Of a DNA stretch of 64,000 nt, positions 7,308-30,625 are shown piece after piece. A program made the translations under genes and the position numbers. The notes under the pieces are model-generated. The model was not told where the DNA came from, ran no database searches, and saw only the letters and a list, made by a program, of their open reading frames with translations. Position 1 is the stretch's first letter. Each line of letters opens with the position of its first letter. Origin of the DNA: Mytilisepta virgata (Eukaryota > Mollusca > Bivalvia > Mytilida > Mytilidae); NCBI GenBank assembly GCA_028015205.1, contig JAPWFG010000018.1, forward strand, positions 434,001-498,000. Reading direction: 5' to 3'.

Positions 7308-7412
7308 CCTAGCCAGCCAGTTTTCATATAATCTATCCCAGACCTCTAACACTTGATTTTCCAACTGTGTATTGTTGCTGGTTCCACTTTCTCCATTCAT
7401 CAGATCCCGAAC
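7308..7412 (-). CDS. TMEM245: TMEM245 exon 9 (last exon found in window)
   Basis: Acceptor GTTATTTGTAG|GTTCGG; donor CTGGCTAGG|GTAGGTC. 105 nt, phase 0 at both ends, 35 residues: VRDLMNGESGTSNNTQLENQ then VLEVWDRLYENWLAR. The LE.QVLE.WDRLY motif is strongly conserved in the family. The remaining exons, with the AI-2E-like core, were not found in 1-7300 and are inferred to lie outside the window. Confidence 0.86.
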
Positions 7413-10400
7413 CTACAAATAACACAACTTTTAAAAGAATTGGTGGCTTCCTTGTGTGTGCTTTTGTATAATGTGTGTGGGTGTGTATTTTACAAATTTT
7501 GTAATCATGGTGGAAAACTTTAGACCCTTTAAAATACAATTAATCCACTACATGGATAGCTAACTGAAATTGCAATAAGATAATTATTCTGACAATAAAC
7601 ATCAAAATTTTTCACATTTACAAGCTAACTGCGGACATTGATTTTTGCAAGTTCATGGTTCTACATACATGTATTTGCCAGCCAATAGTTTCTTAAACTC
7701 ACAAAAAATACAGTTTTCCTCTTTGGTCAATGAGACAGTGATTTGAAGTCTTATTTGGTTTGAGAATAAACAATATGGATAACAAGAAAGAAATTAATCC
7801 ATACCCTTGATGCTATCCAATTTCTGCCATACAGGTAAGCATTTCCAACCATAGAGTCCATGGCATTCTGCATTTCATGGCTATCTGGCAACCATCTAAA
7901 ACATAAATCATAGTCTAGACATCAACCATTACTTATTTGAAAAGTAATGAATATGTAACACTTTCTGTGACTTACCGGTAAGCAAAATATTCTAGAATTA
8001 TTCTATGAATGTGTGTAATTCATACATGTACATGCATATTGTGAACAAATATCAACTGAAGATCATTGATCATGGCTGTCAATTTTGTCTCCTATCAAGT
8101 TTCACTTTCTTTATAGCTATAGGGTATGGGGGAATTTTTTTCCCCTGTTAGTCCTTGGGCTCAAGTTGTTTATGTTACCATTGGTTACCATTGGTGGTTG
8201 GCCTCTGGAATCTGAACTTTCCTTGGGGGTGTGGAAAGAATTCAGTTGTATAAGTACATGTATAAGTGTCTAAACTTTGAAATTCAATTGGTGTTCAGTT
8301 TAATGATTTTCGAAAATTGGTAGGGAAGTTAAATTACAAGTATAATTATTTTTTCATAGGCAAAGGTGGGGTTTAATTCTCCCCTGTGATGGTCATGTTA
8401 ATTGTTCAAATGAAATAAATATGCAAATGTTGTAAACTTCAACCCATTTATGCTTCATACCATCTTGGATACCATGCATGTCAGATCAGGATAAGGACCT
8501 CTTGGGAGTTTGTACTCACCTGTCAACAATGAAGTTTTACATTCAAGCCAAACTTGAGGTAGGGTGTGCATGATTCCAATTTTTACTGACAAAGATTGCC
8601 AGTTTTCTTTACCACTAGTTCTCCCTGTGTATTTCTGCTCTATCCACCAATAAAAAACTGCTGCCACAATAAAGCCGTTACTCAGCTGAAAGTGGCATTA
8701 AACCCCAATAAATCAAACAAACCATGACATACGTACTTACGCTGTTATTTCTGGATGAAGTGTTGTGTTGAAGACATTACTAGTCATTTGTACTAAATGC
8801 ATACTTTCTTGTTGAACCTAAAACCAGACATGAATACATGTGAGTGAATTCAAATCAAAAGAGAGCACAGACAAAGATTAAATTTTAAAATACATGCATC
8901 TTCAATCTTCAATACTTTTCCGAACACAAATATTTTCCAACAACTTCTGAAAAACTATTTGCTTATATTTTAAAAATAGTGTATGCATACCTGAGCAACA
9001 CAGAATACTGTTAATAAACTGGTTCCCACTAGTAGTAACAGTATAAACAAGACACTAGTAGCTTTGTCTAAAGATTGTTCCAATATTCTTATGATCTGAA
9101 ATTTATAATAAAAACATTCTGCTACAAAACACATATAATTTAGAGGTACTGTCAGCAAGCTCACAAAAAAAACCCTCTTCAAAATGTCAAACAAAAAATT
9201 ATGTTACTTCATGCACACCATAATGATGTTGGTGCACTACTGTTAAGTGAAGATTCATTGAAATCTACTAGAGGATTTACACTAAGACTTAATAGGTCAA
9301 ATTATCTCCCCTTTGAGATGTCAGAAATTCTTCTGCTTTTGCACATTCTAATATTTAGTAGTCTTTTTAAATTCCATCCTGTCATTTAAGTAGTAGTAGG
9401 TGCACTTACAAGGTCAGTACCTTATGCTGATTCAATCAAGTCCAATTATTTCCCGTTCCAAACTCTACTGTACTACCTTTGTATAAAATTTCTTTAAATT
9501 CCATCCAACTGTTGAGAACAGTTTAGAAATCATATTTACAAGATCATGGACAGACGGACAGACAGATATGGGGATTGAGCCCCCTGAATGACACAATACG
9601 TAAAGATATACATGACTGGCGGCTTCAAACAGAATTCTTACCAATAAATGAATCCACATTGTATAACTTTAAAATAATAATACGGATATTCCATCCTCCC
9701 AAGGACTAACCTTAGCATCTCCTCTCTTTATAAGCAGGAAGAGTCCACAAATCCATCGAGGGGCCAAAGCATCTTTTCTCTTCATTAACCATTCTTCAAC
9801 ACTAGACCTCAATGTTTTCATTCGATCACCAAATATACCTTCACTACTTAACTGATACCCTATGTAGAGTAAAAGAAAAATAATCCAGTTTATATAATTA
9901 TCTGTCATCTTTTCCTTTAAGGAATATGTGATACTTCAGTGTATTATTATCTATACAGAGTTCTAGAGAGCCCAAGATACAGGGGCATTACTCACATCTA
10001 GTCTTAATATGCATCCCTGTGCAATTTAAATGACATAATTTTTCGATACATGTGTTGAATTTTCATTCGTAAAATTTTGAAATTCTGTTCAAAATCGTAT
10101 CTCACCTAAAAGATATAAACAGAACTAAAATTCTTGTTATAATATGGGAAAATCAATATATTTCAACATGTTCTATTTTAATTTTCCATAACTTTTTAAC
10201 AGAAAACAAAAATGTTTTACGTTATAAACATAACTTGTATGGGTGACTGCTTAAATATTGTTTTGTTGGATCTCGCCTCTAAAAAACAATTTTATATGCA
10301 TTGATGCTTCTCAGGAAAATGCTATGGATATAATTGTTTTACTTGTCTTACAAGAGTCAGAAAGTGCTTAGCCATTAGGACAATCTGAGTTCACCTGTTA

Positions 10401-13400
10401 TTTCAACAGGCCCCTGTTGCTAACCATCTTTAAAAAAGGTTTTTGGTATTATGTTTCGGTTGTTGTTAAATTTGTCCTAACCAATCTTTTTTTTTAAATC
10501 TTTGTTTCTAGATTTATGACCTATTCATATGATTATTGTTTTTTTACTATTTTTCAGCTGGATATCTATCGTCTTATCAAACTATAACTTGATTACTTAA
10601 TGCTTTGAAAAGCCATATCACTACAGCAATAGGCAACAAACTATAACTTGATTACCAAATGCCTTGAAAAGCCATATCACTACAGCAATAGGCAACAAAC
10701 TATAACTTGATTACTTAATGCCTTGAAAAGCCATATCACCACAGCAATAGGCAACAAATTATAACTTGATAACCTAATGCTTTGAAAAGCCATATCACAA
10801 CAGCAAAAGGCAACAGCCTATAACTTGATTACCTAATGCTTTGAAAAGCCATATCACCACAGCAATAGGCAACAAATTATAACTTGATAACCTAATGCTT
10901 TGAAAAGCCATATCACAACAGCAAAAGGCAACAGCCTATAACTTGATTACCTAATGCTTTGAAAAGCCATATCACTACAGCAATAGGCAACAAACTATAA
11001 CTTGATTACCTAATGCTTTGAAAAGCCATATCACCACAGCAATAGGCAACAAATTATAACTTGATAACCTAATGCTTTGAAAAGCCATATCACAACAGCA
11101 AAAGGCAACAGCCTATAACTTGATTACCTAATGCTTTGAAAAGCCATATCACTACAGCTATAGGCAACACACTATAACTTGATTACCTAATGCCTTGAAA
11201 AGCCATATCACTACAGCAACAGGCAACAAACTATAACTTGATTACCTAATGCCTTGAAAAGCCATATCACTACAGCAATAGGCAACAAACTATAACTTGA
11301 TTACTTAATGCCTTGAAAAGCCATATCACCACAGCAATAGGCAACAAATTATAACTTGATAACCTAATGCTTTGAAAAGCCATATCACAACAGCAAAAGG
11401 CAACAGCCTATAACTTGATTACCTAATGCTTTGAAAAGCCATATCACTACAGCTATAGGCAACACACTATAACTTGATTACCTAATGCCTTGAAAAGCCA
11501 TATCACTACAGCAACAGGCAACAAACTATAACTTGATTACCTAATGCCTTGAAAAGCCATATCACTACAGCAACAGGCAACAAACTATAACTTGATTACC
11601 TAATGCCTTGAAAAGCCATATCACTACAGCAATAGGCAACAAGAGTTGAAGAATCCACATGTTCATCCAAAGTCTAGTCAAAACCAACATCCAAAAGAGA
11701 ATCAGGAAGTAGGTGTCACTGTCAGACCCTTTTTTAACCTCAGTGACAAAAGAACTCTGAGGCTGTTCCTTTGCAGGTGGTACTTTAGATGTTGCAGCTT
11801 CTTTGTTTTCCACCGGTTCCTTTGCTGTCGTACTAAGTTTAGGAGCAGTTTTCTTTGGTAAAAATGAACCAGTTACATTGTGTACTCTCACTGGTAAGCT
11901 GGTTGGTTTTTTCATTTCTGCTTCTACAATACCATTTTATAATGTATCTTTTATACTACAACTAGGAGATTAGTCAGAGCTCAAAAAGAAGTCTTGTGCA
12001 TAATTGATATCTAGATATATATACATTGTATATCTAAGATAGATATATAGTCTTGTGTGTTTTTTTAATTTTGGTTCTTTTCTATGTTTCAGAGTTTACT
12101 GTGTTGTCCATTTTGCTGAACTAGTATACATTGTTGTTTAGGGGCCAGCTTAAACTAACCTCCGGGTGTGGGATTTTCTCGCTGCGTTGAAGACACATTG
12201 GTAGACTTGAGCTGTTTTCTGCTCTTTGGTCAAGTTGCTGTCTCTTTGACACATTCCCCTTTTCCATTCTCTATTCTATACATATGTTTTTTGTCTGAAC
12301 TTTCAGGCTTATTTCAAATTCTCTCAGTTTCTATCCAATGTTAGAAAAATCATATTTCTTATAATTATGTAGATTCTTTGACCTCAAATAGGATTTATAA
12401 AAAATACATAACGTTTATTATTGTATCATGTGTATCAACCAGGAAACTGTTAGTTTCCTGAATAACCCAGATATCTAAAGGAAAAATCCATTTAAAAAAA
12501 AGTGTTTTTCTTACCATGAACCATATACATGTATATACTGCTAGTTGTATTTATAAATATGTCCAACTATCATTTAAAAAGACAAAAAGTGAAGATGCGT
12601 ATTTCACACACCAAATTTGAATTTCAAATGGACAAAAACCATGTGGAATGACATGTCTTCCTGCAGGCTGTTACCGTCTGAGCTAGCACACTAAAAAACC
12701 TGCTAGTGTGTCAGTTTAGTAAAAAAAAGAGTTTCGTATTCATATCACATTAACATCTACTCGTTCTGATATGCATTTAATAATAACCCCTAGACATTAA
12801 TCAATAATGGGTCTACTCCCTATAATAATGGTTGTACTGCAGTAAAGGGTCTTATTTTCATGACCTAGCTATCTAGAACAGGGTAATAATTTCTCTATAA
12901 TTGTCTAGAATCAACAGGTTCAAAATTTAAAATGTAGAATTAAAGAATAAACAAGAGTGGAAATACTAAATGTCTCGCTCTAGAATGCACATGGATATAT
13001 AATAAAGATTATAAGAAATCTGACATCGTTACTCAAAGGAAAATGCACTGCAGCAAGGTTTATATCATAATGTATCTGTGGACCAAAGATCTTAAGTGTA
13101 GGTTTTGTGTGTGCAAAATTATTAAGGTTTTAAAAAAGTTTACTCCGTCGCTGCCAGAAAGTAATTTAATCCCAGGCCAAAGTATTTAACTTTGTTCCAT
13201 TTTCTGTATTCTTTTAATTCTTTCAAAATTTTTAGTTGCTTGACTCGTCCATAAATAGAGATTTTATAAATTGTTGATTTTATGTAGATCAGCGTTATTT
13301 TTGTTACTGGCTGTTGTGAATAGGGTATGTTATTGGTATTTGCTTGTTGTGACCAGTAAGAAGGAAATGATTCACCATATGTACCGAAATCACAGTATTT

Positions 13401-16400
13401 TTCCTGACGGTTCAATGTACGATACCTGTACATGGAGGCCGCTTACGATATTAAAGATATGGTAGTTTTTATTAGCGTAGCGTTTGTTCCACATATTGTT
13501 TTCAAAGTTTTCAAAAATCAATTGAAACTATAATGTTTGGTCGAGGTCGATGCACATAATTTTTTTTTAATGAACATCAGCAGCTTATAATGGTGGAGAT
13601 GGACCTTGAGGGACTCAAAGCAAATTTCTAACTCAATGGATCGTACTTAAAACGTATCGTGATACATATCGTAAATCTATTGAAATATCGCAATATGTAT
13701 CGTATGTCAAAAAAGTGAATAATTACACCCCTAGTGAACAGGGTGTGTTTTTCTAAGGACAATCAGTACAGCCACAAAAAAATTACTGTCAAAATGCCGT
13801 CATCCCTGTTCCTACCTTTTGTTTACACATTAAGTAATATATGTACAATGATTTTTTTATATAATCTGATGATTACACATACAAAAAAATTTAAAATGTG
13901 TGAATTAATGCAACTTGCTACTTTTTTACCTGGCATTTTCTTCAAAAAGCAGACATGGCTGGCAAATATGATCACTTTGAATCCCTGGTGTGCCAAAACC
14001 CAATTTTTTATATGACGAAGTGAAAAGCTGAACTTTCTGAGACAGTGTACTGACTTTCCTTTCTAAATCACCCAGGAGACACAATGAACAAAAAAAAAGT
14101 TTGTTTTCATTTTACCTGATTTGTCGTCCGTCTTTTCACCATCTCTTCCAGCCTCAGTTTGGTTGCCGCCTTCATCTGATTCACTTGATTGTTTATCAGC
14201 ACTCAAACTATCATAGTCACCAGTAATAACAATCCACGCAGTTTCAACTGGTGATGGTGTTACAAGTTTACCTAATATAAATGGAAATACTTAATCCATG
14301 AAAATTTCACTACATGTTATAATTTCCTATATAAGAATAACAGAGGAAGGAATAAAAAATATTTTCAAAAAAACACATTGGGTTTTTTTCTCAATCAACT
14401 CCATGCCCACTTACATGTATCTCTCGGGGCCTCCGTGGCCGAGTGGTCTAGGTAGTTCGTCATGACTACTAATGATCACTAGCCTGTCAACGCTGAGGTT
14501 GTGAGTTCGAATCTCACCTGTGGCGGGGTGTGTTCGACTCTGATCTTAATTGACAAGGATTGCCAATTTTCCTACCGAAGGTCGGTGGTTCTCTCCGGGT
14601 ACTCCTGCTTCCTCCACCAATAAAAATTGGCCGCTGCGAAATAGCTAAATGTGCTGAAAACGGTGTAAAACCCCAACTAAACAAACATGTATCTCTCTAA
14701 TTCATAACAATTGATTATTGTCAAATTTTTAAAACATGCAGAGTCATTAAATATTTCCTGTTTAATGTGTGTGTATTACCCCTTTCAGATACATACAAAT
14801 GTGGTTCATAAATCTGTTCAAACCTATACAGACTATGTAAAAGACTGAAAATTAGTTCAGAGCAGATTTTTCAGCGATAATTGTGTTTAATTTACTAGAA
14901 TTAAACAAACACACTAAGGAAATGGTATAATTTACAGCTAATCACATTCTTGCATTTTTCAAACAAAAGACTGAAAATTAGTTCAGAGCAGATTTTTCAG
15001 TGATAGTTGTGTTTAATTTACTAGAATTAAACAAACACACTAAGGAAATGGTATAATTTACAGCTAATCACATTCTTGCATTTTTCAAACAAAAGACTGA
15101 AAATTAGTTCAGAGCAGATTTTTCAGCGATAATTGTGTTTAATTTACTAGAATTAAACAAACACATTAAGGAAATGGTATAATTTACAGCTAATCACATT
15201 CTTGCATTTTTCAAACAAAACAAAATAATATTAATGAGAATATTTAACATCATCAATTATTATGCATGCATGCATGCATGCAAATGCAAGAGATAATTAG
15301 CAGGCATGATCTCATGCAATACTATAGTGTTATTAACTGGCTGTTTCTGTATTGGTACTGGTATAGATTCAAGGTTTGCTGTATTGGCCTCGAGACCCGT
15401 AGGGTCGAGGGCCAATACAGCTGACCGAGAATCTATACCAGTGCCAATACAGAAACAGCCAGTTCATAACACTTTTATTAAATAATCCAACTTTTTCAAT
15501 ACAGACTTGTTCTGAATGCTGTATTACATACATCAAATCTGAATATAGGGCCAATATTTCCAATACGGACTGGCAATGAAACGACCGGAAGTGAAAAGGC
15601 TGTATTAGCCCTAGGGCTCATACAGCCTTTTTCAGTATTGGACCGGGCCGAAAAGCAAAATAGATCACGTGATTTATATGACCAGGACGACGTCACCAGT
15701 ATGACACATGCCGTTTTCGTAGTATTAGGGCTGTTTTAATCATATTATTTAATAAACAATTTTATTGTGTAGTCAAAAAACTGTTTTATACATAAATGTA
15801 TAATTACTAACCAGTATCTAGTATGATGTTTATGATAAAAATGCATTTTTTGTATTTCTCAAATCTTTGTGACACAATATAGGGTTATTGAACATGTTGA
15901 AGGAATTTTAGTGATTATCTGTTTAGAATATTAATTGCACATAATAGCTTATGTAATATTTTTCCACTCAAGACAACACTGATCAATATCCATGCAATAA
16001 CCATACTTTTATACCCCAGGATGTTTTTTATATATAAACATTAAGACAATAATTTTACTATTTTGTCTGTTTCTAAACTTGAAACTATTGACTGGTCAAT
16101 AGTTTCCAGTACTATTGGCCGGTCAATAGTTTCTGCTACTATTGACTGGTCAGTAGTTTCCAGTACTATTGGCCGGTCAATAGTTTCCGCTACTATTGAC
16201 TGGTCAGTAGTTTCCAGTACTATTGGCCGGTCAATAGTTTCCGCTACTATTGACTGGTCAGTAGTTTCCAGTACTATTGACCGGTCAATAGTTTTCGCTA
16301 CTATTGACCGGTCAATAGTACTGGAAACTACTGACCGGTAAAGTGATCTTGGTATAATAAAACACTAACTGACTGCATATTCGGGGAAAAGTAAGTTTAT

Positions 16401-19400
16401 TTCCCCTTGGTACCTTGGCGACAATAAACTTACTATACCTCTCATACTCAGTCAATAAGTATATAATATGTACATATGAGAAATATTTTCTTGACCATAA
16501 TAAGAATATATTTTACAAGACATAATTTTGCAAGGGACAATATTTTTCAATGCTTTAAATGTATAGCAACATCTTTTAAATATCAAATGAGTCTATTAAA
16601 GCAATATTGCATGGAACGCAATAACATAAGATTATTATGCCTCAGTATGTTTTTTCTATATATAAATCAAGACATTAATTTCACTATTTCTTTACCGGTG
16701 AGTAGTTTCCAAACCTAATCACTGGTAAATAGTGGCTGGTGAATAGTACTGGAAACTATTTACTGGTAAAGTGTTTCTGTATAATAAAACAGTTATTTAA
16801 CAGTCATTTCAGGATATAGCCATTCTATTTGTCCCCTCGACACATTGACTATTTCCCTCTGCTACGCGTCAGGAAAATAGTCAGTGTCTCGGGACAAATA
16901 AAATGGCTATATCCCTCAATACTGTTAAATAAACTGTATAATATTGCATGTTAAATGTTGGCTATACTCTACACTCTACATGGAATATTGCTATACAATA
17001 AACTTTGTTATGACACACAACAATTTGCTAATATCTAAAAGCACATTGCATTTGTGCATACAACTGCAAATTTCGGTTAGTGCAAAATGACAGCCATGGA
17101 TAACAGGAAAGGTCAACAATGACCTACCAATCAATCAACAGGATCAAGCACCAAGGAACTTAAATTTGAAAAGGGGGATATTACATGAGAAAAACAGAAA
17201 TACATGTAGGGTCCAGAACTGGATGGTGCTAAATAGATAAACGTTTTTATTTTACACTTTATCAGTTAACACAGCAGCAAGGAAATGATTTAAATACAGG
17301 AAATTGAGATAGTTTGTTGTATGGAAAAACTGACCGTTTCTGCTGAATTTTTGAGAGACGCTTGCTGATTGAAATTTTCTTTGTAATAAGGCACATTTAC
17401 AAACCGGTTCTGATGATTTTGAACAAAATTTGGAAGGTGGTGCTTATTATGGAAAACACAGTATGTCAATGTATGGTTCAATTGATTATTTAGAAGTTGG
17501 ACTTATACCTTCTATTTCTCTAGGTTTTCGGACTTCTCGCACTTCTGCTACAAATCCAACCACAATGACAACGAGCAGTAAAATAAACAACGGAACTCGA
17601 AGTGATCCTGCCACGGTAGCTGTATGTAGGATCAAAACAACCCATACTGGTATTGATAAATATCTAAGATAACGCTTGGACTCTGGTGACCATACAAGTC
17701 CTACTGCTAGCAGATAACCCGCCATTATAGTCCAGACCTAAAGTAAAAGACAGAAATGATCTGTTAAATTTAAAGCAACCAGATTTTTCTTCATAAGTAT
17801 TTGGAGCAGGCTGCCAGTGTTTACAGAATTACCACATGACTTTTGTATGTATGTATAAACACTTTAATGGTAACATTGTACACCATGGCTTCTGATTAAT
17901 CAATTTCAGTGTTTAAATGAGTGATAAAGCCTTTACAATCTTACCTACATTCTGCTATTTCTTTTTAAGCTACTTTACTATTTCGAAGGCTATCTACATG
18001 TATTGTTTTGGAAAACTACAAAGATCTTTCCTGCGTGACACAACCAAATAAGGGTATACAAATAAGATGCTATACAATGGGTAAACACCAGTGAGAAAAC
18101 AATCTGACAATCAGTGGTTGCATGTTTCCCTTTCTTTTTTTTTAAAGTTTGCTCTGGAACTTTTGGAGAAATGTTTTAGTTCTCAACATTTTAGGCCTTG
18201 ACCACAACTGATGAATTGTAAATAAAAAATTCTCCACATCTTGTGCATCAATTTGGTATCAATTAAATGTATATTCTGGAAACTATCATTATTTCATAAA
18301 TTTTGTAGTTTTGGATTAATTTCTAACTTATCATCAGTGAGTTGCATGTACATGTAGGCTGAGAAAAAAATAATGTTTAACACTTTTAAATTGTATTTAA
18401 CTGAATTTAAGTCAATGACAGGTAACCATATAACTTCTTTTATTCTTTGATGTTCCGAAGTATGAATTTTAAACATCTTTTTTATACAAGTGAGATTCAT
18501 CAAATATCCAATTAAAGCGAATCATCAATTTACACTAATTATGACAATAAACATTAACGATTATCTAATGATTGGCTTTAGTTTTCACACCTGCGCTCCG
18601 AATCATATGCCTGGATGATCAATGAACTATTTGACAGGTGCCTGATTAATTTTACACGTAAGTTCCAGTTCGAGAAACCAGGGTTTTATTTACATAGATA
18701 ATGGAAAATGATGGGACTCTGACACGAGTTTGATCCAACCGCTGTGTTTGAGTGATCTGAGTGTTGGAGCCAACGAAGTTTGACTATAACAAAAACAAGT
18801 TTGGTAATTTATGCAGTCAATAGAGTGGAATATGTGATTTTTACTTCATCTTCTCAACAGAGTTCTCACTAAGAATTTTTCATGATAAGTCCACAATGAT
18901 GAGTCCCAGCTGATTTTGACTCACCACTTTTTTTAACGTACATTCCTGTATGATTTTGAGCATGGAAGGCCTACTGGACTATTGTTAAAAGTTTAATTAA
19001 AATCATGTGCGGACTCAAAATACTGACGAATATAATTTCAAAAAAAAATTTGATAATATGCACAGTTGGAAGAAAAATTTCTGTTACAGATATGAGCAAA
19101 AACCATTGCGTTTTTTGACACAACTTATTTATTATGGTCATTATTTTGTTTTTTAATAATTATCTATCTATGATCTTTATATTATTTTTTCTCAAAAATA
19201 CTCTTTAATTTCTCCCATTGACCTTGTTTTAACACATTAATAATCAATATTGTCAAAATTTCCATTTGTGCATAGATAAGTCAAAGTCCGCTAAATTTAT
19301 TTTTAAATGAGGTCTACATATTGTTAGTGGTCAGTAAAAAACACTGTGGCCAATAAAAAATTGCGAGTGCCGCCATTTTCTAGCTTACCTTTTGTCATTT

Positions 19401-22400: not shown

Positions 22401-25400
22401 AAAAAAATTCATCATACGTAATTTTTTTTTTATAAAGTCTATTTGAAAAGTAATTAACTGAAATGTACGCATCGACAAACCTTAATAAAATAAATTAGGC
22501 TATATTGCAGATATCCATGAAATTTTCCATGCAACGAGAATATAAGATACTGCATTGAATATTGAACTAGAGGCTCCTAGGAGCCTGTGTCGCTCTTATT
22601 AAATCATTTGCAGACTTAAAGCAGAATAAATCGCTTGATTATGTTTATCTTGACTGGCAGTCTGGAGGATAAATGCTCCAAAGTTCTGATTGGCACACTG
22701 GTTTCAAATAAGAAGAGGTGCCAGTTAACCACCTTGAATGATCCATGCCAACAAATAATATTCTGATAAAAAAGACCTTCTAAGGACCATTTCTGCCAAA
22801 TTGGGTTGGTTTCAGAGAAAAAGACTTATAAGTGAATTTTACCATAAATTTAAACTAAGTTGGCCATCTTGGATGGCAGGCAGGGTCATTGCATACAATT
22901 CTATGAAAGGATCAACTTAGGACCATTGCTACTAAGTTTGGTTCCAATATGCATACTGATTTCAGACAAGTCAATTTTTCCATAGGGTTTAACTATGTTT
23001 GGCTCTGGCGCCATCTTGGATGGAAGTCTGGGTCATCGGTTACAACTTTAACTAAAGGCTCCCAGGAGCCTGTATCGCTCACCTGGACTACGTCCATCTT
23101 GACTGGCAGCCTGGAACTTTGCTGTCAAGTTCCATTTTCAAACAAGAAGATCTTTCAGTGATTTTTCCAGTTAGGTCCTATGTTAAACACTGCTCGGCTC
23201 TGGTAGCCATCTTGGGTGACGGATTGGGTCGTAGGATATAACTCTGTAAGAGGACCAACTAAGGACCATTGCTGCCAAATTTTTTTCCAAATGTCCCAGT
23301 GGTTTTAGACAAGATCTTTAAGTAAATTTCCCATAGGGTCCTATATTAAACTAGGTTTCAGACAAGAAGATCCTTAAGTAAATTTCCATAGGGTCTTATG
23401 TTAAACAATGTTCAGCTCTGGCGGCCATCTTGCATGATGGGCTGGGTCATCAGCTATAATTCTGAAAGCGAACCACCTAAAGACCATTGTTGCCAAGTTT
23501 TGTTCCAATTGGCCTCGTGGTTTCAGACAAGATCTTTAATTAAATACTCCATAGGGTCCTATGTTAAACTATGTTTGGCTGTGGCGGCCATCTTGGATGA
23601 CAGGGCCGGTCATCGGATATAATTCTGAAAGAGGACCACCTAAGGACCATTGCTGCTAAATTTTATTCTAATTGGCCAAGTGGTTACACGCCGGAGGCAA
23701 GAACATCTTTACGTAAATTTCCAATAGGGTCCTATGTTAAACTGTGGCCATCTCGGATAACAGGCGAGGTCATTGGACATTTTTCTGAAAGAGGACCACC
23801 TAAGGACCATTACTGTTAAGTTTTGTTCCAATTGGCCAAGTGGTTTCAGGCAAGGTCTTTAAGTAAATTTCCTATAGTGTCCTATGTTAAACTATGTTCG
23901 GCGCTGGCGGCAATCTTGGATGAGGGGCCGAATCATTGGATATAATGCTGAAAGAGAACCACCTAAGGACCATTGCTGCCAAATTTGGTTCCAATTGGCT
24001 CAGTGGTTTTAGAGAAGATCTTTAAAGGAAATTTTACTACGACGACGATGACGACGGACGCCAAGTGATGGCAATATCTCACATGGCCCTTTGGGCCAAG
24101 TGAACTAATAAAGGATCATCTAAGGACCATTGCTGCCAATTTTGGTTCCAATTGGCATACTGATTTCAGACAAAATATCTTGGATGGCGGGCGGAATCAA
24201 TGGATACAATTCTGAAAGAGGACTTTATTTCACCTGACCTGTAAATATATATAATACTGTGCAAAGTTAAATGCAGAAAAGTCTAGGTCACAAGCTTAAA
24301 TGTACATTTTTTATAAATTCGACTACATGCGAACACTAATGTTTGCAATTGATCTACAGATTGTTTGCAATCATTATGTAAAAAAATAACGCCCCTAATC
24401 GCAACAATAGAAGATACATGTAAGAAGTTGATGGACGCCTGAATGGAAAATCTTACCGTGTAACGTACGAACAGTTAAAGTTATATTAATAATAAAAATC
24501 ATAAAACAATCCTTCGAAATGGTCTACAGAAATTTTTTGTGTAAACAAATCAACGATGGACTAGCATTAAACACAAACCCTGTCGGTGCGACAAAAAATC
24601 TAATTCCCGCCCCTATTCATATGACCTCAACATGACCTCTTACCGTGGAAATCGTGCGCGTGCGTATAGCGAAAGTTGCTGAAGAAAATGTCTACACAAA
24701 GTAAATAGTAGTAGTCGACCAAGATCATTTACTGTTTTTGCCAAAAAAAGAAATAGCAAAGTGGTTTTTGCAACGCCTACGAAACGTATGACATTTGCCA
24801 GGCGTCAAATGGACAAGAAGAGGCTGGGAATGAAATACATTATCATAAACTTCATCGATTGAATCATCATGTGTTTTGATATTTACGATTTCCCAAAATA
24901 GCTCCTAAATGTTATTGTTTTACCTTAACTATAGCTTCTTACGCTAATTTTATCAAAACAAATGTGTGAAGATTGTAATTAAAATGTATAAAATAAATCT
25001 GAAATGCATTATATTGTTTACGTTCTCACTTTTTGGAATTAGATTATTTTGGGCAACTAATACGAACATGACGAAGTTCGGTCATTTCCGTTAAGACTTA
25101 CCAATTGCATAAATAATCAGCCTCATTGCTAAAGCCGATGCGAAATGTTCTTGGAAATTAGTGTAATTACCCGGAAGGGGGGGGGTTACTCTCTGGATTG
25201 TTGACGGGGATGTGTGGAAATGGCCTAAGAAAAGGTACCCGAGCAAATAACAGAATATATGTTAATAATATACAAAAAAAAATTATTTAGATGAAAATAC
25301 CTATACCCGCAAAGCAGCCACATCGGCAAAGCACACCCGGACTTATACTGATGTTAATGTACAAACGTCTGAGGAATTGAATAGCACTCAATTTACAACC

Positions 25401-27841
25401 CGAATAAATATTAGTTTTTCAAAACATACCCCGAATTAATACCAAAAATCATGAAAAACCCCACCCCGGGTTATTAAATTAACTGAAAACCTAGACCTAC
25501 AAATATACCTGAATTAATGTCTTTGGGTTTCAAAATAGCAGTTTTCCGAGATACTTGGAAATCACAATTTTCATAATATTGTATTTTGAACAACCTTCCA
25601 ATCCTCAATGCATTCAATTACATACGGCATGATTAACTCGATCGTGACTAAATCTTAAATAAAATGAACATACCTCTCAACTTAAATGACTTCTGTGTAA
25701 TCTTTCATCAATTAATTATAGTTTTTCGTATCTAAAGATTATACGGTTCCATGTAATAATGTGACCATGACCAATTCAAACCATATGATTGGTTATTGTT
25801 GACCGCACCCATTATATCCATCAATTCATCATAAACGTGCATATATTTGAGCGCTTTAACCCCGTTACTTATGAATAAAAGAGAATTATCAAATCTCTAA
25901 TTGATAAAATGGAAAGTATTTAGCATTACCATGATGATATGAGGCGTATGTCCCTTTCAAGATAGTTCTAGTTTTTCTTGAGTAAATGATAATTTATATA
26001 ATTTGGCAGTGTAAATTGATTTTAACAATAGATAAATTCAAAATATGCTCTTAAAAGGAAGCCCATATTATTGAAATATGTATTGCAAATCAATATCGAA
26101 TATATAGGACAACTCAAAAGAGCAAAGGGCTAGGTCTTTATATTCTTATTTTATGAAATAATCGAATATGAAGTCCCAGTCCATGTGTAAATGACTTCAA
26201 CTCACGCAGGTAAAAAGTTTCGAAAATTAAGACGTGGCACTTTTTTGACCCCTTTAAATCTCTAAAAGATAGAGATATTTAAGAGATAGTCAAAATATGG
26301 ATCTAAATGAATCAATCAAGAAGCATTGAAAAATAAAAATGAGTTGAAAATTTTAAAATGTACACCAAAATTATAAAAAAAACTTTCTCATCCCCCCCCT
26401 CCAAAAAAAAAGCTGGAGAGTCCAGATTTACTAAAATCATTCGTATATGGAGACTACTGTGGTAAAATATTATAAGGATTTGTTAAATACATGTAGAACA
26501 AAAGTAAATGAGCGGAAAATTAACGGTCTACGGAAGCGGACACCGACGACAACGACACTACCATACCATAATACGTCTGCACACATTTTTCTACACCAAG
26601 GTGAACACGTCGGGCTTAGTAGTGTATGGACATAACATGCTCATTGTCCACAGATGGAATGATATACTCTTCAAAAAAAGAAACGCATAGACAAAATATG
26701 TATGATTGAGATTTAATTTTTCTCTGTTTATGTCTATTTTAAGCAAAGGTGTTTTATGAGGCAATAACTCAATGCTAAATGATTTCAAATCAAGTGCAAA
26801 AAATTTGTTATTACTGATTATGGCGTCATTTCACGAAATTTTCGAAAAATAACGAAATTGACAAAAATCACCCAAAATATGAAAACGAAAACTTTATTAA
26901 TGACCTTGATTATGTTCACCATAATTCGTAAACTTAAAAAAACAACGGAAATGAACCAATTTCCATGATAATCTGGACCATTTGCCCTTCAATTGTCCGT
27001 TCGAAAAAATACGAAATCGGTGTTTCTTTCTGGAAACTTCCCAGAAAAAGAAATTTTGAACTTTATACAGCTGGGTGAGTTGACCTTTAACAGGATATCT
27101 TAGTAGTATTAATTTTTTTTTATTAAAATGTCATAAAAAATGTTTAAAGGTGTTTAAGTCATTAATATGTGCTATAATTAAATTTTTTAGGTGTCTTTCG
27201 GTCATTCCAAGTGTTTTTCGGATAATGACGCATCTTTTGAGTTACCTGATGTTTCCACCCAATGCTGCACCTAGCATTAACTAGAATTGCTATTTGATTG
27301 GGAATAAAGAATATGAATTGAATAACCGAATCCTTACCCAAAAGGATGAGAAATATCCCAACATAGTATATATAAAGTGCAGAACTGACTGGATGGCACC
27401 AAATATTGCACTAACAGGACCAAAATGCCATAATATATATGAAGAAAATATTGCCAACAATACTCCCAGCAGCAATTTCAAATGTTTTACAATCTTTGAA
27501 TAAATGCTCTCATAAACTTCATTTGCAGTGCTAATTGGCAATGTGATAATGCCAACTACAAATGGGGTTCCAGAGTCGTGCAGTCCTGTCAACCATTTTC
27601 TCAGCGAATTAGTCAACGATCTCTTAAACGGATACAAAAAGGTTCCACATAGCACCGACCACATCAGTGGACCAAGAAAAGGTTCCAAAATAAAATAAAC
27701 TGCGATTGCAGCTGCACCCGCTAATAGTACGAAAATATTGGCTGCTGTTGTGTAAATAGCCTGCTTAAATGCTTTATCATGGCCTTGTGGTAAGATTGCA
27801 TTGATGGAAGAACGAAAATTGACAGGTGTCTGTGGTTCCAT
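7308..27841 (-). CDS. TMEM245: TMEM245 orthologue, nine 5' exons (3' end outside window)
   Basis: Multi-pass membrane protein of the TMEM245 family, whose C-terminal half (not in this window) belongs to the AI-2E family of putative transporters; the substrate in animals is not settled. I joined nine minus-strand exons: 27338-27841, 17509-17737, 14116-14271, 11600-11923, 9711-9859, 8991-9095, 8741-8817, 7805-7895 and 7308-7412. All introns are GT-AG and all phases agree. Together they give 1740 nt (580 codons); vertebrate TMEM245 is about 880 residues, so roughly 300 C-terminal residues lie further left. Recognition rests on the N-terminal motifs VYFILEPFLGPLMWSVLCGT and YPFKRSLT and on the C-terminal QQESMHLV and LEVWDRLY, which match my memory of the vertebrate protein. 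Individual exons are listed separately. Confidence 0.88.
7805..7895 (-). CDS. TMEM245: TMEM245 exon 8
   Basis: Acceptor TTATGTTTTAG|ATGGTTG and donor GCATCAAGG|GTATGG. 91 nt; one base completes the split Ala codon, then it reads WLPDSHEMQNAMDSMVGNAY and LYGRNWIASR, ending in phase 0. The order W-L-P, then M..A..S..., then Y..GR.WI matches the family. Too short to appear as an independent open frame. Confidence 0.85.
8570..8720 (+). repeat. Relic of a SINE 3' domain
   Basis: Sequence from GACAAAGATTGCCAGTTTTC to TTAAACCCCAATAAATCAAA is a diverged copy of the 3' part of the SINE at 14426-14684. They share the order GATTGCCA, GGTTCTC-like, CTGCT, TCCACCAATAAAAA, then AAACCCCAA. The tRNA-like head is missing. 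It lies in TMEM245 intron 7, antisense to the gene. Confidence 0.55.
8741..8817 (-). CDS. TMEM245: TMEM245 exon 7 (conserved VQQESMHLV block)
   Basis: Acceptor CTGGTTTTAG|GTTCAACAA; donor ATAACAGC|GTAAGTAC. 77 nt, entering in phase 0 and leaving two bases. It encodes VQQESMHLVQMTSNVFNTTL and HPEIT. It closely resembles the QQESMHL...TSN...HPE block that I remember from vertebrate TMEM245. It contains two possible N-glycosylation sequons depending on topology. Too short to stand out as an open frame. Confidence 0.85.
8991..9095 (-). CDS. TMEM245: TMEM245 exon 6 (one membrane span)
   Basis: Acceptor ATAAATTTCAG|ATCATA and donor GTTGCTCAG|GTATGC; 105 nt, phase 0 at both ends. It encodes IIRILEQSLDKATSVLFILL followed by LLVGTSLLTVFCVAQ, a strong transmembrane helix of about 22 residues. 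The open frame can be read upstream to an ATG at 9194, but that part is intronic. Confidence 0.86.
9711..9859 (-). CDS. TMEM245: TMEM245 exon 5 (residues ~405-454)
   Basis: Acceptor TTTTACTCTACATAG|GGTATC with a clear pyrimidine tract; donor GATGCTAAG|GTTAGT. It takes two bases into the split Gly codon and ends in phase 0. It encodes YQLSSEGIFGDRMKTLRSSV and EEWLMKRKDALAPRWICG, then a short hydrophobic stretch (LFLLI) and KRGDAK. It is largely amphipathic or hydrophilic. An upstream ATG in the same open frame (9908) lies in the intron and is not used. Confidence 0.85.
9860..10576. other. TMEM245 intron 4, unique part
   Basis: No coding, RNA or repeat feature could be supported between exon 5 and the minisatellite. 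AT-rich. Confidence 0.5.
10577..11641 (-). repeat. 59-bp minisatellite of exon-4 end plus splice donor, 18 copies
   Basis: Eighteen head-to-tail copies of a 59-bp unit. Read on the minus (gene) strand each unit is 43 bp matching the 3' end of TMEM245 exon 4 (TTGTTGCCTATTGCTGTAGT... ending CAAGGCATTAG) followed by 16 bp of intron starting GTAATC. The copy at 11583-11641 is the genuine exon end. All 18 copies keep the GT of the donor: ten read AG|GTAATC, four AG|GTTATC, three AA|GTAATC and one TG|GTAATC. Variants recur in a higher-order pattern of three to six units, so the array grew by stepwise block duplication. Confidence 0.93.
11600..11923 (-). CDS. TMEM245: TMEM245 exon 4 (loop plus two membrane spans; end lies in a minisatellite)
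   Basis: Acceptor GGTATTGTAG|AAGCAG; donor GGCATTAG|GTAATC. It encodes a Lys/Pro/Thr-rich loop (MKKPTSLPVRVHNVTGSFLP...) and then GSDSDTYFLILFWMLVLTRL and MWILQLLLPIAVVIWLFKAL, two hydrophobic segments. The exon enters with two bases and leaves with one, matching exons 3 and 5. The last 43 bp plus the donor form the first copy of a 59-bp tandem repeat that runs on into the intron. If this donor were skipped, translation would continue 11 codons and meet TAG at 11565-11567. Confidence 0.87.
12045..12290 (+). repeat. Dispersed repeat tail (TTGACACATTCCC type), copy 1
   Basis: Contains GTCCATTTTGCTGAACTAGT, TCTGCTCTTTGGTCAAGTTG and GTCTCTTTGACACATTCCCC. The same string order occurs at 36840-37030 and, in part, on the opposite strand at 42030-42105 and 51525-51605. 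This is a dispersed tail that I associate with mussel genomes; its parent element is not identified. It lies in TMEM245 intron 3. Confidence 0.6.
12291..14115. other. Rest of TMEM245 intron 3
   Basis: No coding exon supported. Around 13640-13735 there is a run rich in ATATCG/CGTATCG strings ending in TAATTACACCCCT, which resembles the end of a DNA transposon, but no partner end was found. Confidence 0.4.
14116..14271 (-). CDS. TMEM245: TMEM245 exon 3 (acidic, low-complexity loop)
   Basis: Acceptor ATATTAG|GTAAACTT and donor AAATCAG|GTAAAATG. It takes two bases to complete the split Gly codon and leaves one base. It encodes about 52 residues beginning KLVTPSPVETAWIVITGDYD and then a hydrophilic Ser/Asp/Glu-rich run (QSSESDEGG, GRDGEKTDD). 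This is probably a disordered cytosolic loop between membrane blocks. It contains no membrane span. The exact fit of both phases to its neighbours is the main support, because such loops are poorly conserved. Confidence 0.82.
14413..14697 (+). mobile_element. tRNA-derived SINE with perfect 13-bp target duplications
   Basis: The element (14426-14684) starts with a tRNA-like head. The A-box-like string is TGGCCGAGTGGTCTAGG and the B-box is GAGTTCGAATCTC, followed by CACCTGTGGCGGGG, resembling a Ser/Leu-type tRNA. It continues into a non-tRNA body (GATTGCCAATTTTCCTACCG, then TCCACCAATAAAAATTGGCC) and a short A-rich tail. Both sides carry the identical 13-mer ACATGTATCTCTC (14413-14425, 14685-14697), so this is an L1-style insertion and probably fairly young. 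It sits in TMEM245 intron 2, antisense to the gene. Confidence 0.85.
14842..15218. repeat. ~125-bp direct tandem repeat, 3 copies
   Basis: Three nearly identical units starting AAGACTGAAAATTAGTTCAG at 14842, 14967 and 15093. They differ at only a few positions (for example CAGCGATAATT against CAGTGATAGTT). The first two are followed by CATTTTTCAAACAAAAGACT, the junction of the tandem. High identity suggests a recent expansion. Confidence 0.85.
15327..15472. repeat. Long hairpin with ~70-bp arms and CG-containing loop
   Basis: Arms about 15327-15398 and 15402-15472 are inverted copies with a few mismatches. They include ACTGGCTGTTTCTGTATTGG and CCAATACAGAAACAGCCAGT. The tip of the hairpin is CCTCGAGACCCGTAGGGTCGAGG-like with almost no loop. 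Next to it, 15594-15633 forms a second stem (AAAAGGCTGTATTAGCCC and its complement). Probably one palindromic mobile element of about 400 bp (15326-15730). Confidence 0.8.
15594..15633. repeat. Short hairpin (AAGGCTGTAT stem)
   Basis: AAAAGGCTGTATTAGCCC pairs with GGGCTCATACAGCCTTTT across a 4-bp centre. It shares the AATACAG/CTGTATT vocabulary with the larger hairpin 120 bp to its left, so the two are probably parts of one element. Confidence 0.6.
16079..16338. repeat. 27/54-bp palindromic minisatellite (CTATTGACCGGTCAATAG)
   Basis: About nine and a half 27-bp half-units alternate as two types, giving a 54-bp period. Each half-unit contains a dyad of the form CTATTGACCGGTCAATAG (a perfect palindrome in the last copies) followed by TTTCC(A/G). 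One frame stays open for 92 codons with an 18-residue period, but this is a by-product of the period being a multiple of three. It lies in TMEM245 intron 2. Confidence 0.85.
16390..16434. repeat. Short hairpin
   Basis: AGTAAGTTTATT (16390-16401) pairs with AATAAACTTACT (16423-16434) around CCTTGGTACCTTGG. It directly follows the 54-bp array. Confidence 0.6.
16616..16800. repeat. Diverged second copy of the block around the 54-bp array
   Basis: The sequence ATATATAAATCAAGACATTA...TTTACCGGTGAGTAGTTTCC then ACTGGAAACTATTTACTGGT and GTATAATAAAAC parallels the flanks of the 16079-16338 array (about 16025-16080 and 16320-16365). Here it has only one or two dyads instead of an expanded array. It therefore looks like an unexpanded paralogous copy. 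Confidence 0.6.
16812..16913. repeat. Long hairpin (~45-bp arms)
   Basis: GGATATAGCCATTCTATTTG... (16812-16857) pairs with ...CAAATAAAATGGCTATATCC (16870-16913), with a few mismatches and a 12-bp CG-containing centre (CTGCTACGCGTC). It follows the pattern of the hairpins at 1887 and 15327. Confidence 0.75.
17509..17737 (-). CDS. TMEM245: TMEM245 exon 2 (residues ~169-245)
   Basis: Acceptor CTTTTACTTTAG|GTCTGG and donor GAAATAGAAG|GTATAAGT. It enters in phase 0 and leaves with one base. It encodes VWTIMAGYLLAVGLVWSPES followed by two hydrophobic segments (VWVVLILHTATVAG and PLFILLLVVIVVGFVAEV), so it adds two membrane spans. The terminal Gly codon is split with exon 3. Length 229 nt. It is separated from exon 1 by a 9.6-kb intron full of repeats. 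Confidence 0.88.
19946..20475. mobile_element. MITE-like element with TGATCATG-rich ends
   Basis: The left end GGGTGCATTTTTTTATTCTG and right end AGTAAAAAAAATGCACCC are inverted copies, each followed inward by TGATCATG-type dyads. The motif GATCATG(N)CATGATC recurs at about 19968, 19990, 20024, 20390 and 20436. An internal open frame (20100-20411 +) has no recognisable domain. No clear target duplication. Confidence 0.5.
20650..20757 (+). repeat. Left member of a widely spaced inverted repeat
   Basis: Begins GGTAACTCCAAAGACCGAAA and contains ATTATCCGAAAAAAACACTT and TTATAGCACATATTAGTGAC. It is an inverted copy (about 85% by eye) of 27142-27246, next to TMEM245 exon 1. The two could be the ends of one 6.6-kb element or two copies of a short one in opposite orientation. 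Confidence 0.7.
20982..21442. repeat. Array of nine 16-bp palindromes with AATAAA on both strands
   Basis: AGAATAAATTTATTCT or a variant occurs at 20982, 21069, 21124, 21191, 21238, 21285, 21332, 21379 and 21427. The last five are spaced 47-48 bp apart, separated by a repeated linker (GTACAATCTTCTTTTTC). In the last two copies both outer bases change together to GGAATAAATTTATTCC, keeping the dyad perfect. Each palindrome contains AATAAA on both strands. It lies in TMEM245 intron 1. Confidence 0.9.
21565..21700 (+). repeat. Degenerate tRNA-headed SINE
   Basis: GACCTCGGTGGTCTCGTGGT resembles the tRNA-like A-box head of bivalve SINEs. It is followed after about 80 bp by CAGCTCGGAGTCAGTATAATGTG and GTGATATGTCACTT, a body typical of those elements. 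The B-box region is eroded. No target duplication was found. Confidence 0.45.
22569..24106 (+). repeat. Common molluscan-type dispersed repeat, copy 2 (nested)
   Basis: Begins AGGCTCCTAGGAGCCTGTGT and ends with ACGCCAAGTGATGGCAATAT...GGCCAAGTGAACT, the same start and end vocabulary as 3189-4807. A second start (AAGGCTCCCAGGAGCCTGTA) at 23055 shows two copies joined or nested. The interior repeats blocks of the form GCCATCTTGGATG...GGACCATTGCTGCCAA...GTTTCAGACAAG every 150-250 bp. A leftover fragment continues to about 24230. No coding capacity. Confidence 0.65.
27142..27246 (-). repeat. Right member of the widely spaced inverted repeat
   Basis: Inverted copy of 20650-20757: it ends ...CATCTTTTGAGTTACC and contains AAGTGTTTTTCGGATAATGA. 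It lies only about 90 bp inside intron 1 from the exon 1 donor. Confidence 0.7.
27338..27841 (-). CDS. TMEM245: TMEM245 exon 1 (N-terminus, 168 codons)
   Basis: Starts at the only suitable ATG (27839-27841), reading MEPQTPVNFRSSINAILPQG. Membrane segments are visible at about residues 30-52 (IFVLLAGAAAIAVYFILEPF), 55-72, 120-140 and 145-165. The block FLGPLMWSVLCGTFLYPFKR is the family signature near the N-terminus. The open frame continues past the true end: the donor is TTTTGG|GTAAGG, so the exon ends after Trp168 in phase 0 and the following residues (VRIRLFN...) are intron. There is no signal peptide; the first 30 residues look cytosolic. The bases before the ATG (AAAATAAAG) are an acceptable but not strong context. 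Confidence 0.9.
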
Positions 27842-28243: not shown

Positions 28244-30625
28244 ACTTACCCAAAAACACCCAAAACTACCCAAAAACTACCCAAAAACACCCAAAAACAC
28301 CAAAAACAGTAAAATTATGGAATAAAAATTAAAGATTTATTTTCTATATAAGTTTTTATTTGTTTTTTTTTTTAATAAAACAGGTAGAATTATATTTGCC
28401 CAGTATATTCGTATTTTTACTATCCCGTGCAAGAACGATAACTCAGTATGACAGTTCAATGCCTACTTTGCATTACAAAAAAAAAATTATAAAATCATTC
28501 GACAGCACTAAATAATAAAAAAGAATATTTTTAATTTTATTAAATAAAGGATATTATTTTCCCGGCAAATTAATCGTTTTTATTTAACTTATTGGTATGG
28601 ATAACAGTATGACATGCGTTTTATATTCAAACAGCTTCTAGGCAAATTCTCTTTGTCGAAAGTCAATAATCCGATTATCAATTAATGATCAATTTGTTTT
28701 CTGTAGTACCGTTGCAAATATAATAAAAAGGTAGAAAGGACAAGCAAAAATTATTAATAAATTTACAAAAAAGAAAAAGCGAAAGAACAAAATTATGGAG
28801 TATAGGAATACAACTTAATGTGTTTGTGTATTAAACCTTCGATGTCGTTTACATTTTTTTTTCTTGTTTGTAATTTGCTGACAGTATATCGAATACAGAT
28901 GAACCATACTGCAAAAAAGCATGAACACCAACACCACTCTAAAAGCTAGTCAACGTTTATATAAAGATACAAACAAAGATAGCAGGGCGTTTGCGTGGAG
29001 TTAGAAACAACAAAACACTGAACTACACACAAACAATTTCAATATAAACATGACAAATAGATGACAAATTAATTATTCCCGTCTACGGGAAAGACTCGTA
29101 AGATGAAGAACGACAATAATAGCTTTGGTCCTTTCTTTTTTGCTTTGTTAAACCCTGTATTGATTTAAGACGTGTTCTCATGTACATTTATCGCATATCC
29201 TTCTAGTTAATCTTGTAAATTCAAGAGTCAAACAACTAAAGTAAATAAATAAATCATTACAACAATATAAATTTATTTTTGTTTACTTTATAATAATACA
29301 ATAATTGAAGATCAAATGTTTTATGTAAATTTCTTAGACGTTTTGGCATTTCTTGGCCTCTTTGATTGTTGTGGTTTTTTTTTGCTACACATTTGGCCTT
29401 ATTGGGAATTGCATAATTGCATTTTACTGATCTGACCTCGGTTACACACGGTTTCTTGCATCTTAAAAACTTAAGAAAGTATTTGTCGCGAATTTCCTTG
29501 CATTTTGCCTTGAAAATGTCTTCTTTTATATAGAATGTCTTATACGAACTACAAAGTCTGTAATTGCCTGTGCCATATAACGCTCTCCGTAAATCTATGA
29601 GGTGGAGTTTTATCACATCACAAATCTTGTTAATTAAATCTGGCGTGCTTTGAGGAGCCCAATTTGTGTCTATTTTTAAAATACTGTTCATTGACTCGGC
29701 GTTGTTGTTAGTCCAACTACGTTCTGTTTTAGCCAGATGTTGCATGTTTAATAGCAACTTCGGTTTCAAAGTTCTGTCGTAGTACTGGCGGAATCTTGGA
29801 TACATGTTGAGGTCACTTAAAAGAAAATCCGAGCGCTCCTCAAATTCAAAAGTGTCGTCTGCGTTAAGTATACCTATTAAGTAGTCTATTTAGACTCTTT
29901 GCATAGTTGACGTTGTGTTGCATTTTGATTGCCAAAAAGAACTAGGATTGTACAATACCATCTCCAGTTTTTATTGAAATTCAGAAAATTGAGTAAATTG
30001 GTTTCACTTAAAACATTATTTTTACTTGTTTAGTATTGTTTAAACACAAGCCAATTCATTGCGTTTGATTTCCGTCCTCAGTTTCTTTGATCCATTTTGT
30101 ACAGGGAGCACATGTTTTTCTTAAAAAAATCTCAAAACATACCTCTGTTTTGACTAGCAACTAACACAAAAAAATAATTACTTTCAATTAAAAAAGGAAA
30201 CGATTGTTTGTAAACAAGTAGTCGTAAGTAATAAGATGAATGATAGACGAGGATCAATTACAAAATTATTAAAGCAATTGTTAACCTTTGATCTTTCGGT
30301 ATGGTTGTATATAAATAAATTTTAAATATTTATTAAAAATTTAAATCCTAAAGGATATTTTTTTCCTCGAAATTTCCAATAATTTTATAAAATTATAAAA
30401 TCAGAAGATCTTAATATTCAATGACATCTTACTGAGTTATCGTTCTTGCACGGGATAGTAATAATACGAATATACTGGGCAAATATAATGATTTATACCT
30501 ATTTTATTGAAAAAAAACAAATAAAAACTTATATAGAAAATAAATCTTTAATTTTTATTCCATAATTTTATTGTTTTTGGTGTTTTTGGGTGTTTTTGGG
30601 TAGTTTTGGGTGTTTTTGGGTAAGT
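28244..30625 (-). mobile_element. MULE-like DNA transposon with ~200-bp terminal inverted repeats
   Basis: The ends (28244-28448 and 30430-30625) are inverted copies over about 200 bp. Outermost is ACTTACCCAAAAACACCC, a run of ACCC-A(3-5)-spaced motifs, and innermost the shared string CCGTGCAAGAACGATAACTC. The left end has one extra AAAACTACCC unit. The interior carries a transposase remnant (29257-29880, minus). Size 2.38 kb. I could not find a matching 8-10 bp target duplication; the left flank is retroelement and the right flank an unrelated repeat. Confidence 0.8.
29257..29880 (-). pseudogene. MULE-type transposase, C-terminal part
   Basis: The open frame from an upstream stop near 29882 gives about 205 codons. 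It contains AKTERSWTNNNAESMNSILK, then NWAPQSTPDLINKICDVIKL and RRALYGTGNYRL, and ends in a basic tail. The NNN(A/S)ES(M/F)N..LK motif followed by W.P..L..LI and (R)AL.G.G.Y is typical of the C-terminal half of MULE-like transposases in molluscs. The catalytic DDE core and N-terminal zinc finger were not found between here and the right end, so the element is probably non-functional. ATG at 29803-29805. Confidence 0.55.

What the first reader, a model, noticed from the sequence alone, without database searches (positions are those of the whole stretch)
10577..11641. A tandem array of 18 splice donors made from the end of TMEM245 exon 4
The 59-bp minisatellite is a direct amplification of an exon/intron border: 43 bp of coding sequence plus 16 bp of intron including the GT. 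All 18 copies keep GT despite other changes, and fourteen keep AG|GT. Because 59 is not a multiple of three and each extra unit carries a TAG (first at 11565), use of any donor but the first gives a truncated protein. The gene therefore carries a copy-number-variable set of competing 5' splice sites, which could tune the ratio of full-length to truncated or decayed mRNA, or sequester U1 snRNP.
Basis: partly seen in the sequence, partly recalled or inferred. Interest (0 to 1): 0.88.

Follow-up and report, generated by a model that had tools for sequence, protein, structure and literature searches.

The report
Splice-donor minisatellite in mussel TMEM245
In a mussel-like gene, the border between one exon and its intron has been copied 18 times in a row; only the first copy gives the normal protein, and similar copied borders are already known from lancelets and humans, so this is a striking example of a known kind of repeat rather than a new mechanism.

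Summary
On the minus strand 18 head-to-tail 59-bp units (11642 to 10581) each carry the last 43 bp of exon 4 and first 16 bp of intron 4 of TMEM245; 18 of 18 keep GT, 14 of 18 AG|GT. I rebuilt nine exons (580 aa, open) of a bivalve TMEM245, closest Mytilus (69%); donor 11600|11599 joins exon 5 at 9859 as the protein demands: 35 of 36 homologues have no extra residue there. Any of the other 17 donors gives one and the same stop in unit 2.
The functional reading is not supported: GT conservation is what chance gives (10 of 59 columns vary; P = 0.69), while three of eight donor-core columns vary. The three donors nearest exon 5, and five others, are weaker. Units fall in repeated blocks, as unequal exchange leaves them.
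The closest known kind is the amphioxus "mirage" minisatellite, tandem copies of exon/intron borders reported not to disturb splicing (PMC3087553, PMC3902484, passages); human IFI6 has one whose donors are used (PMC4526556, passage). I judge this a new, long member in a bivalve. RNA, other alleles and relatives' DNA were not seen.

The parts
10581..11642 (-). array of 18 units of 59 bp, each 43 bp of exon-4 end plus 16 bp of intron-4 start
10578..10580 (-). TTG after the last unit; the same three bases begin unit 1 (3-bp microhomology at the two edges of the duplicated segment)
11600..11923 (-). TMEM245 exon 4 (324 bp), ending in unit 1
11598..11599 (-). donor 1 GT, the only donor of 18 that keeps the reading frame without a stop
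10595..11540 (-). span of donors 2 to 18, every 59 bp (last exon-side base 11541 down to 10597)
11565..11567 (-). TAG in unit 2, first in-frame stop for donors 2 to 18 (17 of 17)
9711..9859 (-). exon 5; its acceptor is the partner of donor 1
27338..27841 (-). exon 1 (from the ATG; any untranslated exon upstream not sought)
17509..17737 (-). exon 2
14116..14271 (-). exon 3
8991..9095 (-). exon 6
8741..8817 (-). exon 7
7805..7895 (-). exon 8
7308..7412 (-). exon 9; the 3' part of the gene was not found in the window

Best explanation
A mirage-type minisatellite. A 59-bp segment across the exon-4/intron-4 border of a bivalve TMEM245 gene was duplicated between two TTG triplets, then grew by unequal exchange or slippage of single units and of blocks to 18 copies. 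Donor 1, the only one that keeps the protein, is the one mainly used; the other 17 copies (1,003 bp) lie in the first 1,019 bp of intron 4 and are removed with it. They evolve like neutral minisatellite DNA, at the price of some mis-spliced message that ends at one common stop and is probably destroyed by nonsense-mediated decay. Shown: array, border, open frame through donor 1, common stop, block structure. Inferred: donor use, decay, neutrality, growth by exchange.
For: Donor 1 to exon 5 gives an open 580-aa protein part. At that junction 35 of 36 homologues, the three Mytilus ones included, have no extra residue; the exception, P0018, has 7 extra residues just before the split codon, unlike the array's reading, and 0 of 36 hold the three read-through strings I looked for. 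Unit order by type is ABBCDEABCDFGDHDEIJ, 10 types in 18 units; mean difference at lag 5 is 2.1 against 4.1-4.7 at lags 1-4; units 1 and 7 are identical. 3-bp microhomology TTG at the edges. GT invariance expected by chance, P = 0.69. Unit 1 does not recur elsewhere in the window beyond 12-bp matches. Arrays are common here: if the seed units of 7 arrays in the gene, this one included, fell at random, at least one would cross a splice border in 32% of trials. Amphioxus mirages show the same anatomy and regular splicing.
Against: No RNA was seen. Nine of the other 17 donors equal donor 1 in U1 pairing (-6.5 kcal/mol; U1 sequence recalled), and when equal donors compete the one nearer the acceptor is often favoured (recalled), which would give truncated message; donor 1 must win through exon length (324 bp against 383-1327 bp) or enhancers, neither tested. 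No other species' DNA and no second allele was seen, so neutrality and growth by exchange rest on one array.
Confidence: 0.76

Rival explanations
1. A splice rheostat: the 17 extra donors compete with donor 1, so that array length sets how much TMEM245 message is full-length and how much carries the common stop and is decayed (IFI6-like donor minisatellite with a poison outcome).
For: All 17 other donors give the same stop; 9 of the 17 equal donor 1 in U1 pairing; in human IFI6 repeat units are used as alternative donors (PMC4526556, passage).
Against: No sign of constraint on donor core positions; the donors nearest the acceptor (16-18) are all weaker (-4.0, -5.1, -4.0); amphioxus mirages splice normally.
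Confidence: 0.12
2. Stepwise (recursive) removal: since the units read AG|GT, a donor can be spliced to the AG of a later unit and restore a donor, so the array is shortened within the pre-mRNA without changing the final message.
For: 14 of 18 units carry AG|GT with CTTTTC upstream.
Against: As acceptors those 14 score at the 60th percentile of all AGs on the strand, the other four lower, in a small 8-acceptor model that ranks real sites poorly (leave-one-out -3.5 to 9.2), so the test is weak; another AG lies 6-7 bases upstream.
Confidence: 0.05
3. Copy number is wrong in the assembly (collapse or false expansion of a longer or shorter array).
For: Arrays are hard to assemble; PMC3087553 reports that an amphioxus mirage appears aberrantly assembled in the genome draft. 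Blocks of identical units occur.
Against: Ten distinct unit types in an order that is not a simple block copy. Reads were not available.
Confidence: 0.05
4. The array soaks up U1 snRNP.
For: 18 donor-like sites.
Against: Ten of 18 pair about as well as the median of the eight exon donors scored (-6.45), the other eight less well; 18 sites in one transcript are few beside all other donors in a cell (recalled).
Confidence: 0.02

Closest known systems
'Mirage' minisatellites of amphioxus (Adh3, globins BflGb6 and BflGb9, troponin C, PGBD5)
   Same: Tandem copies of an exon/intron border, minisatellite unit size, many units with AG/GT, homogenised inside the array (PMC3087553 abstract and passages; PMC3902484 passage).
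   Different: Bivalve, not cephalochordate; 18 units against 6 and 3 in the two BflGb6 haplotypes (unit numbers at Adh3 not seen). Length instability and undisturbed splicing are reported there, not shown here.
IFI6 (6-16, G1P3) minisatellite with multiple splice donor sites (Turri, Cuin and Porter 1995)
   Same: A minisatellite that multiplies a splice donor at an exon end.
   Different: There two downstream repeat units are used as donors, giving three mRNA species and different isoforms (PMC4526556 passage; the 1995 paper is not held). Here every extra donor gives a stop.
Introns from tandem duplication of exonic AGGT (Rogers; Zhuo 2007; Gao and Lynch 2009; potato RdRp)
   Same: Tandem duplication that copies splice signals; the potato case crosses an intron-exon boundary (PMC4974935 abstract).
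   Different: Here no new intron is needed to explain the product; an existing border was copied many times. Rogers, Zhuo and Gao/Lynch were seen only as cited in PMC3087553.
Variable internal tandem repeats in human segmental duplications
   Same: Minisatellite expansion changes exon and intron structure, with novel introns in some cases (PMC2812944, passages).
   Different: Human paralogues, units of 30 bp repeated 4 times on average.

Membership tests
mirage minisatellite | tandem repeat whose unit spans an exon/intron border | tested here: met
   43 + 16 bp across 11600|11599; border supported by 35 of 36 homologues, the other having 7 extra residues beside it
mirage minisatellite | minisatellite unit (10 to about 160 bp in the published cases) | tested here: met
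   59 bp; range from PMC3087553
mirage minisatellite | many but not all units keep AG/GT | tested here: met
   14 of 18
mirage minisatellite | concerted evolution inside the array | tested here: met
   10 types in 18 units, repeated blocks
mirage minisatellite | length differs between haplotypes | not testable with these tools
   one haplotype; the search of the window's own assembly did not complete
mirage minisatellite | regular splicing not disturbed | not testable with these tools
   no RNA; frame analysis only
IFI6-type donor minisatellite | downstream repeat donors are really used | not testable with these tools
   no RNA; donor strengths only
IFI6-type donor minisatellite | alternative donors give protein isoforms that read on into the next exon | tested here: not met
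   17 of 17 alternative donors stop in unit 2; that this feature defines the type is my reading of the passage
intron gain by tandem AGGT duplication | a new intron formed between copies of an exonic AGGT | tested here: not met
   the copied segment is an exon/intron border and the frame needs only the donor-1 intron; intron positions in relatives were not seen

The most novel reading that the evidence does not exclude
The array is a length-variable splice rheostat: each added unit adds a poison donor with one shared stop, so individuals with longer arrays make less full-length TMEM245, giving the animal a heritable and possibly somatic expression dial built from the exon's own end.
Probability: 0.1. 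Interest if true: 0.72.

Novelty: new member of a known kind. Interest (0 to 1): 0.36.

Why it matters
It takes the border-copying minisatellites known from amphioxus to a bivalve, with 18 units of which 10 pair equally well with U1: a natural test of how the splicing machinery picks one among many equal donors and of how a gene tolerates such an array. If the outermost donor wins, exon length or enhancers must outweigh nearness to the acceptor.

Tried and rejected
Selection on the donors: no sign of it; GT invariance P = 0.69, and core donor columns vary at least as often as others (3 of 8 against 7 of 51).

Faster change of the coding unit through exchange with the intronic copies: 5 of 15 residues differ from Mytilus californianus inside the unit against 12 of 77 in the flanks, P = 0.14; M. 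coruscus 0.13 and M. edulis 0.16; the comparisons with other bivalves (window against three, P 0.28-1.0; Mytilus against five, P 0.08-1.0) show no consistent trend. Not claimed.

Recursive splicing: unit AGs are ordinary. Conserved RNA families: none in the window at gathering score; tRNA scan 0, with the bacterial code. Pfam on the exon-4 peptide alone: one match below cut-off (PF12280, 14.7 bits against 25), discarded. Unit 1 elsewhere in the window: only 11-12-bp matches.

Dropped rows: in the placement test I used 7 arrays within 7308-27841, this one included, merged two rows at 23136-24025 under a period of 190, and dropped overlapping short-period rows. The U1 null used 3,476 GT sites of the minus strand: 3.3% reach -6.5. 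Exon 3 was not in the first gene model, nor in the protein given to the homologue search, nor in the alignment; it was added, and its donor was not scored against U1.

Papers: PMC3087553 (abstract in part and passages), PMC3902484, PMC4526556, PMC2812944, PMC2572611, PMC5585400, PMC12783039 and PMC3039753 as passages; PMC4974935 abstract and outline. PMC2572611 gave only a reference; PMC5585400, PMC12783039 and PMC3039753 did not bear on the verdict. Nine paper searches ran and one was rejected for a sign in a term. I saw no mirage-type array in a mollusc in their listings; only named molluscs, and it listed 20 of 62 papers, so this is no proof of absence.

Full report
What is there. Tandem Repeats Finder reports 10578-11642, period 59, 18.1 copies, 92% matches and no indels. 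Read on the minus strand and cut in register, 18 units run from 11642 to 10581; each has 43 bp that in unit 1 are the end of a coding exon, then GT and 14 more intron bases. All 18 keep GT; 14 keep AG|GT, units 6, 16 and 18 read AA|GT, unit 17 TG|GT, and units 5, 10, 13 and 15 have T at +3.

The gene. Exons were found first with a recalled human TMEM245 and then with the fetched Mytilus californianus protein. Nine exons lie on the minus strand: 27841-27338, 17737-17509, 14271-14116, 11923-11600, 9859-9711, 9095-8991, 8817-8741, 7895-7805 and 7412-7308, with consistent phases, 1,740 bp and 580 codons without a stop. The 3' part was not found in the window. A homologue search with the eight-exon model gave 36 proteins at E up to 0.001 (from the 7,997 best candidates scored); the best are TMEM245 of Mytilus californianus (69%), M. 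coruscus (66%) and M. edulis (64%), so the host is probably a mussel-like bivalve other than these. The species is not known.

The border. With donor 11600|11599 and acceptor 9860|9859 the protein reads ...WLFKAL-G-YQLSSEG..., against ...WLFKFL-G-YQLSSEG... in M. californianus. In the alignment with all 36 homologues 35 have no residue inserted here; P0018 has 7 extra residues just before the split codon, and some others lack residues just after it. In a second alignment no homologue has a residue between the split codon and the first full exon-5 codon, and 0 of 36 hold the three short read-through strings that I looked for. Donor 1 is therefore the productive site. Using donors 2 to 18 (17 of 17) puts the same TAG, 11567-11565 in unit 2, in frame after 415 residues; for donor 2 that stop lies 24 nt before the exon-4/5 junction, for donor 18 968 nt, and further junctions follow. 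This corrects the finding: the alternative donors do not give a series of proteins but one, with different lengths of untranslated tail.

Is the GT conservation meaningful? No. Ten of 59 columns vary; the chance that two given columns are both invariant is 0.69. Positions -2, -1 and +3 of the donor vary, 3 of 8 core columns against 7 of 51 others (Fisher P = 0.13). The three donors nearest exon 5 are weaker, which would help donor 1, but edge units of minisatellites often degenerate (recalled).

How it arose. The left edge reads CAACTC|TTG|TTGCC, the right edge TATAGT|TTG|ATAAG and the unit junction TATAGT|TTG|TTGCC: a 59-bp segment duplicated between TTG triplets. Units fall into ten types in the order ABBCDEABCDFGDHDEIJ, with a period-5 echo (mean difference 2.1 at lag 5 and 2.3 at lag 10, against 4.1-4.7 at lags 1-4); units 1 and 7 are identical. 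That is how unequal exchange and slippage leave an array. Unit 1 has no match over 12 bp elsewhere in the window. The gene holds several other arrays, and with seven seed units placed at random in it at least one would cross a splice border in 32% of trials, so the position needs no special cause.

How it most likely works. Donor 1 is used, the other 17 units leave with intron 4 (1,740 bp), and donor errors give one truncated reading frame that decay should remove. Exon definition favours the shortest exon (324 bp against 383-1327 bp), which is inference. Against this, nearness to the acceptor often favours the innermost of equal donors (recalled); only RNA can decide.

What is known. Amphioxus genes have tandem copies of exon/intron borders, called mirages, reported at Adh3 (Canestro 2002, seen as a reference only) and in globin genes, where two haplotypes of one gene have 6 and 3 units, many units carry AG/GT, and RT-PCR suggests that regular splicing is not disturbed (PMC3087553); PMC3902484 adds PGBD5 and cites troponin C. 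The human IFI6 minisatellite supplies donors that are used, giving three messages (PMC4526556). Tandem duplication as a source of introns is a published model (PMC4974935; PMC2812944). The array meets the four mirage features that I could test; the other two, length variation and undisturbed splicing, could not be tested. I file it as a new member of that kind, notable for its 18 units and its bivalve host.

Noticed in passing
14271 (minus strand): Exon 3 begins with GTAAAC directly after its acceptor (ATTAG|GTAAAC), a ratchet-like AG|GT arrangement at an ordinary exon start.
   Followed up: no
44620-46368, 46390-47136, 47819-48241, 55022-55639, 55681-56596 (minus strand): Open reading frames, some of which look like reverse transcriptases of non-LTR or Penelope-like retroelements; the pieces at 46390 and 55022 are near copies of each other (by eye).
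   Followed up: no
29257-29805 (minus strand): A 182-aa open frame that may be a transposase fragment (by eye).
   Followed up: no
41116-41769, 60537-60954, 61319-61751: Three arrays with related units of 155-158 bp (relation by eye), like the satellite-type repeats carried by mobile elements in bivalves (recalled).
   Followed up: no
16084-16319: A 27/54-bp array in TMEM245 intron 2 with palindromic units (ACTATTGACCGGTCAATAGT).
   Followed up: no
11348-11406 and 9845-9859 (minus strand): Units with GTTATCAAGTTA after the border resemble the start of exon 5 (GGTATCAGTTA), so that they read GYQV against GYQL; probably chance, not tested.
   Followed up: no
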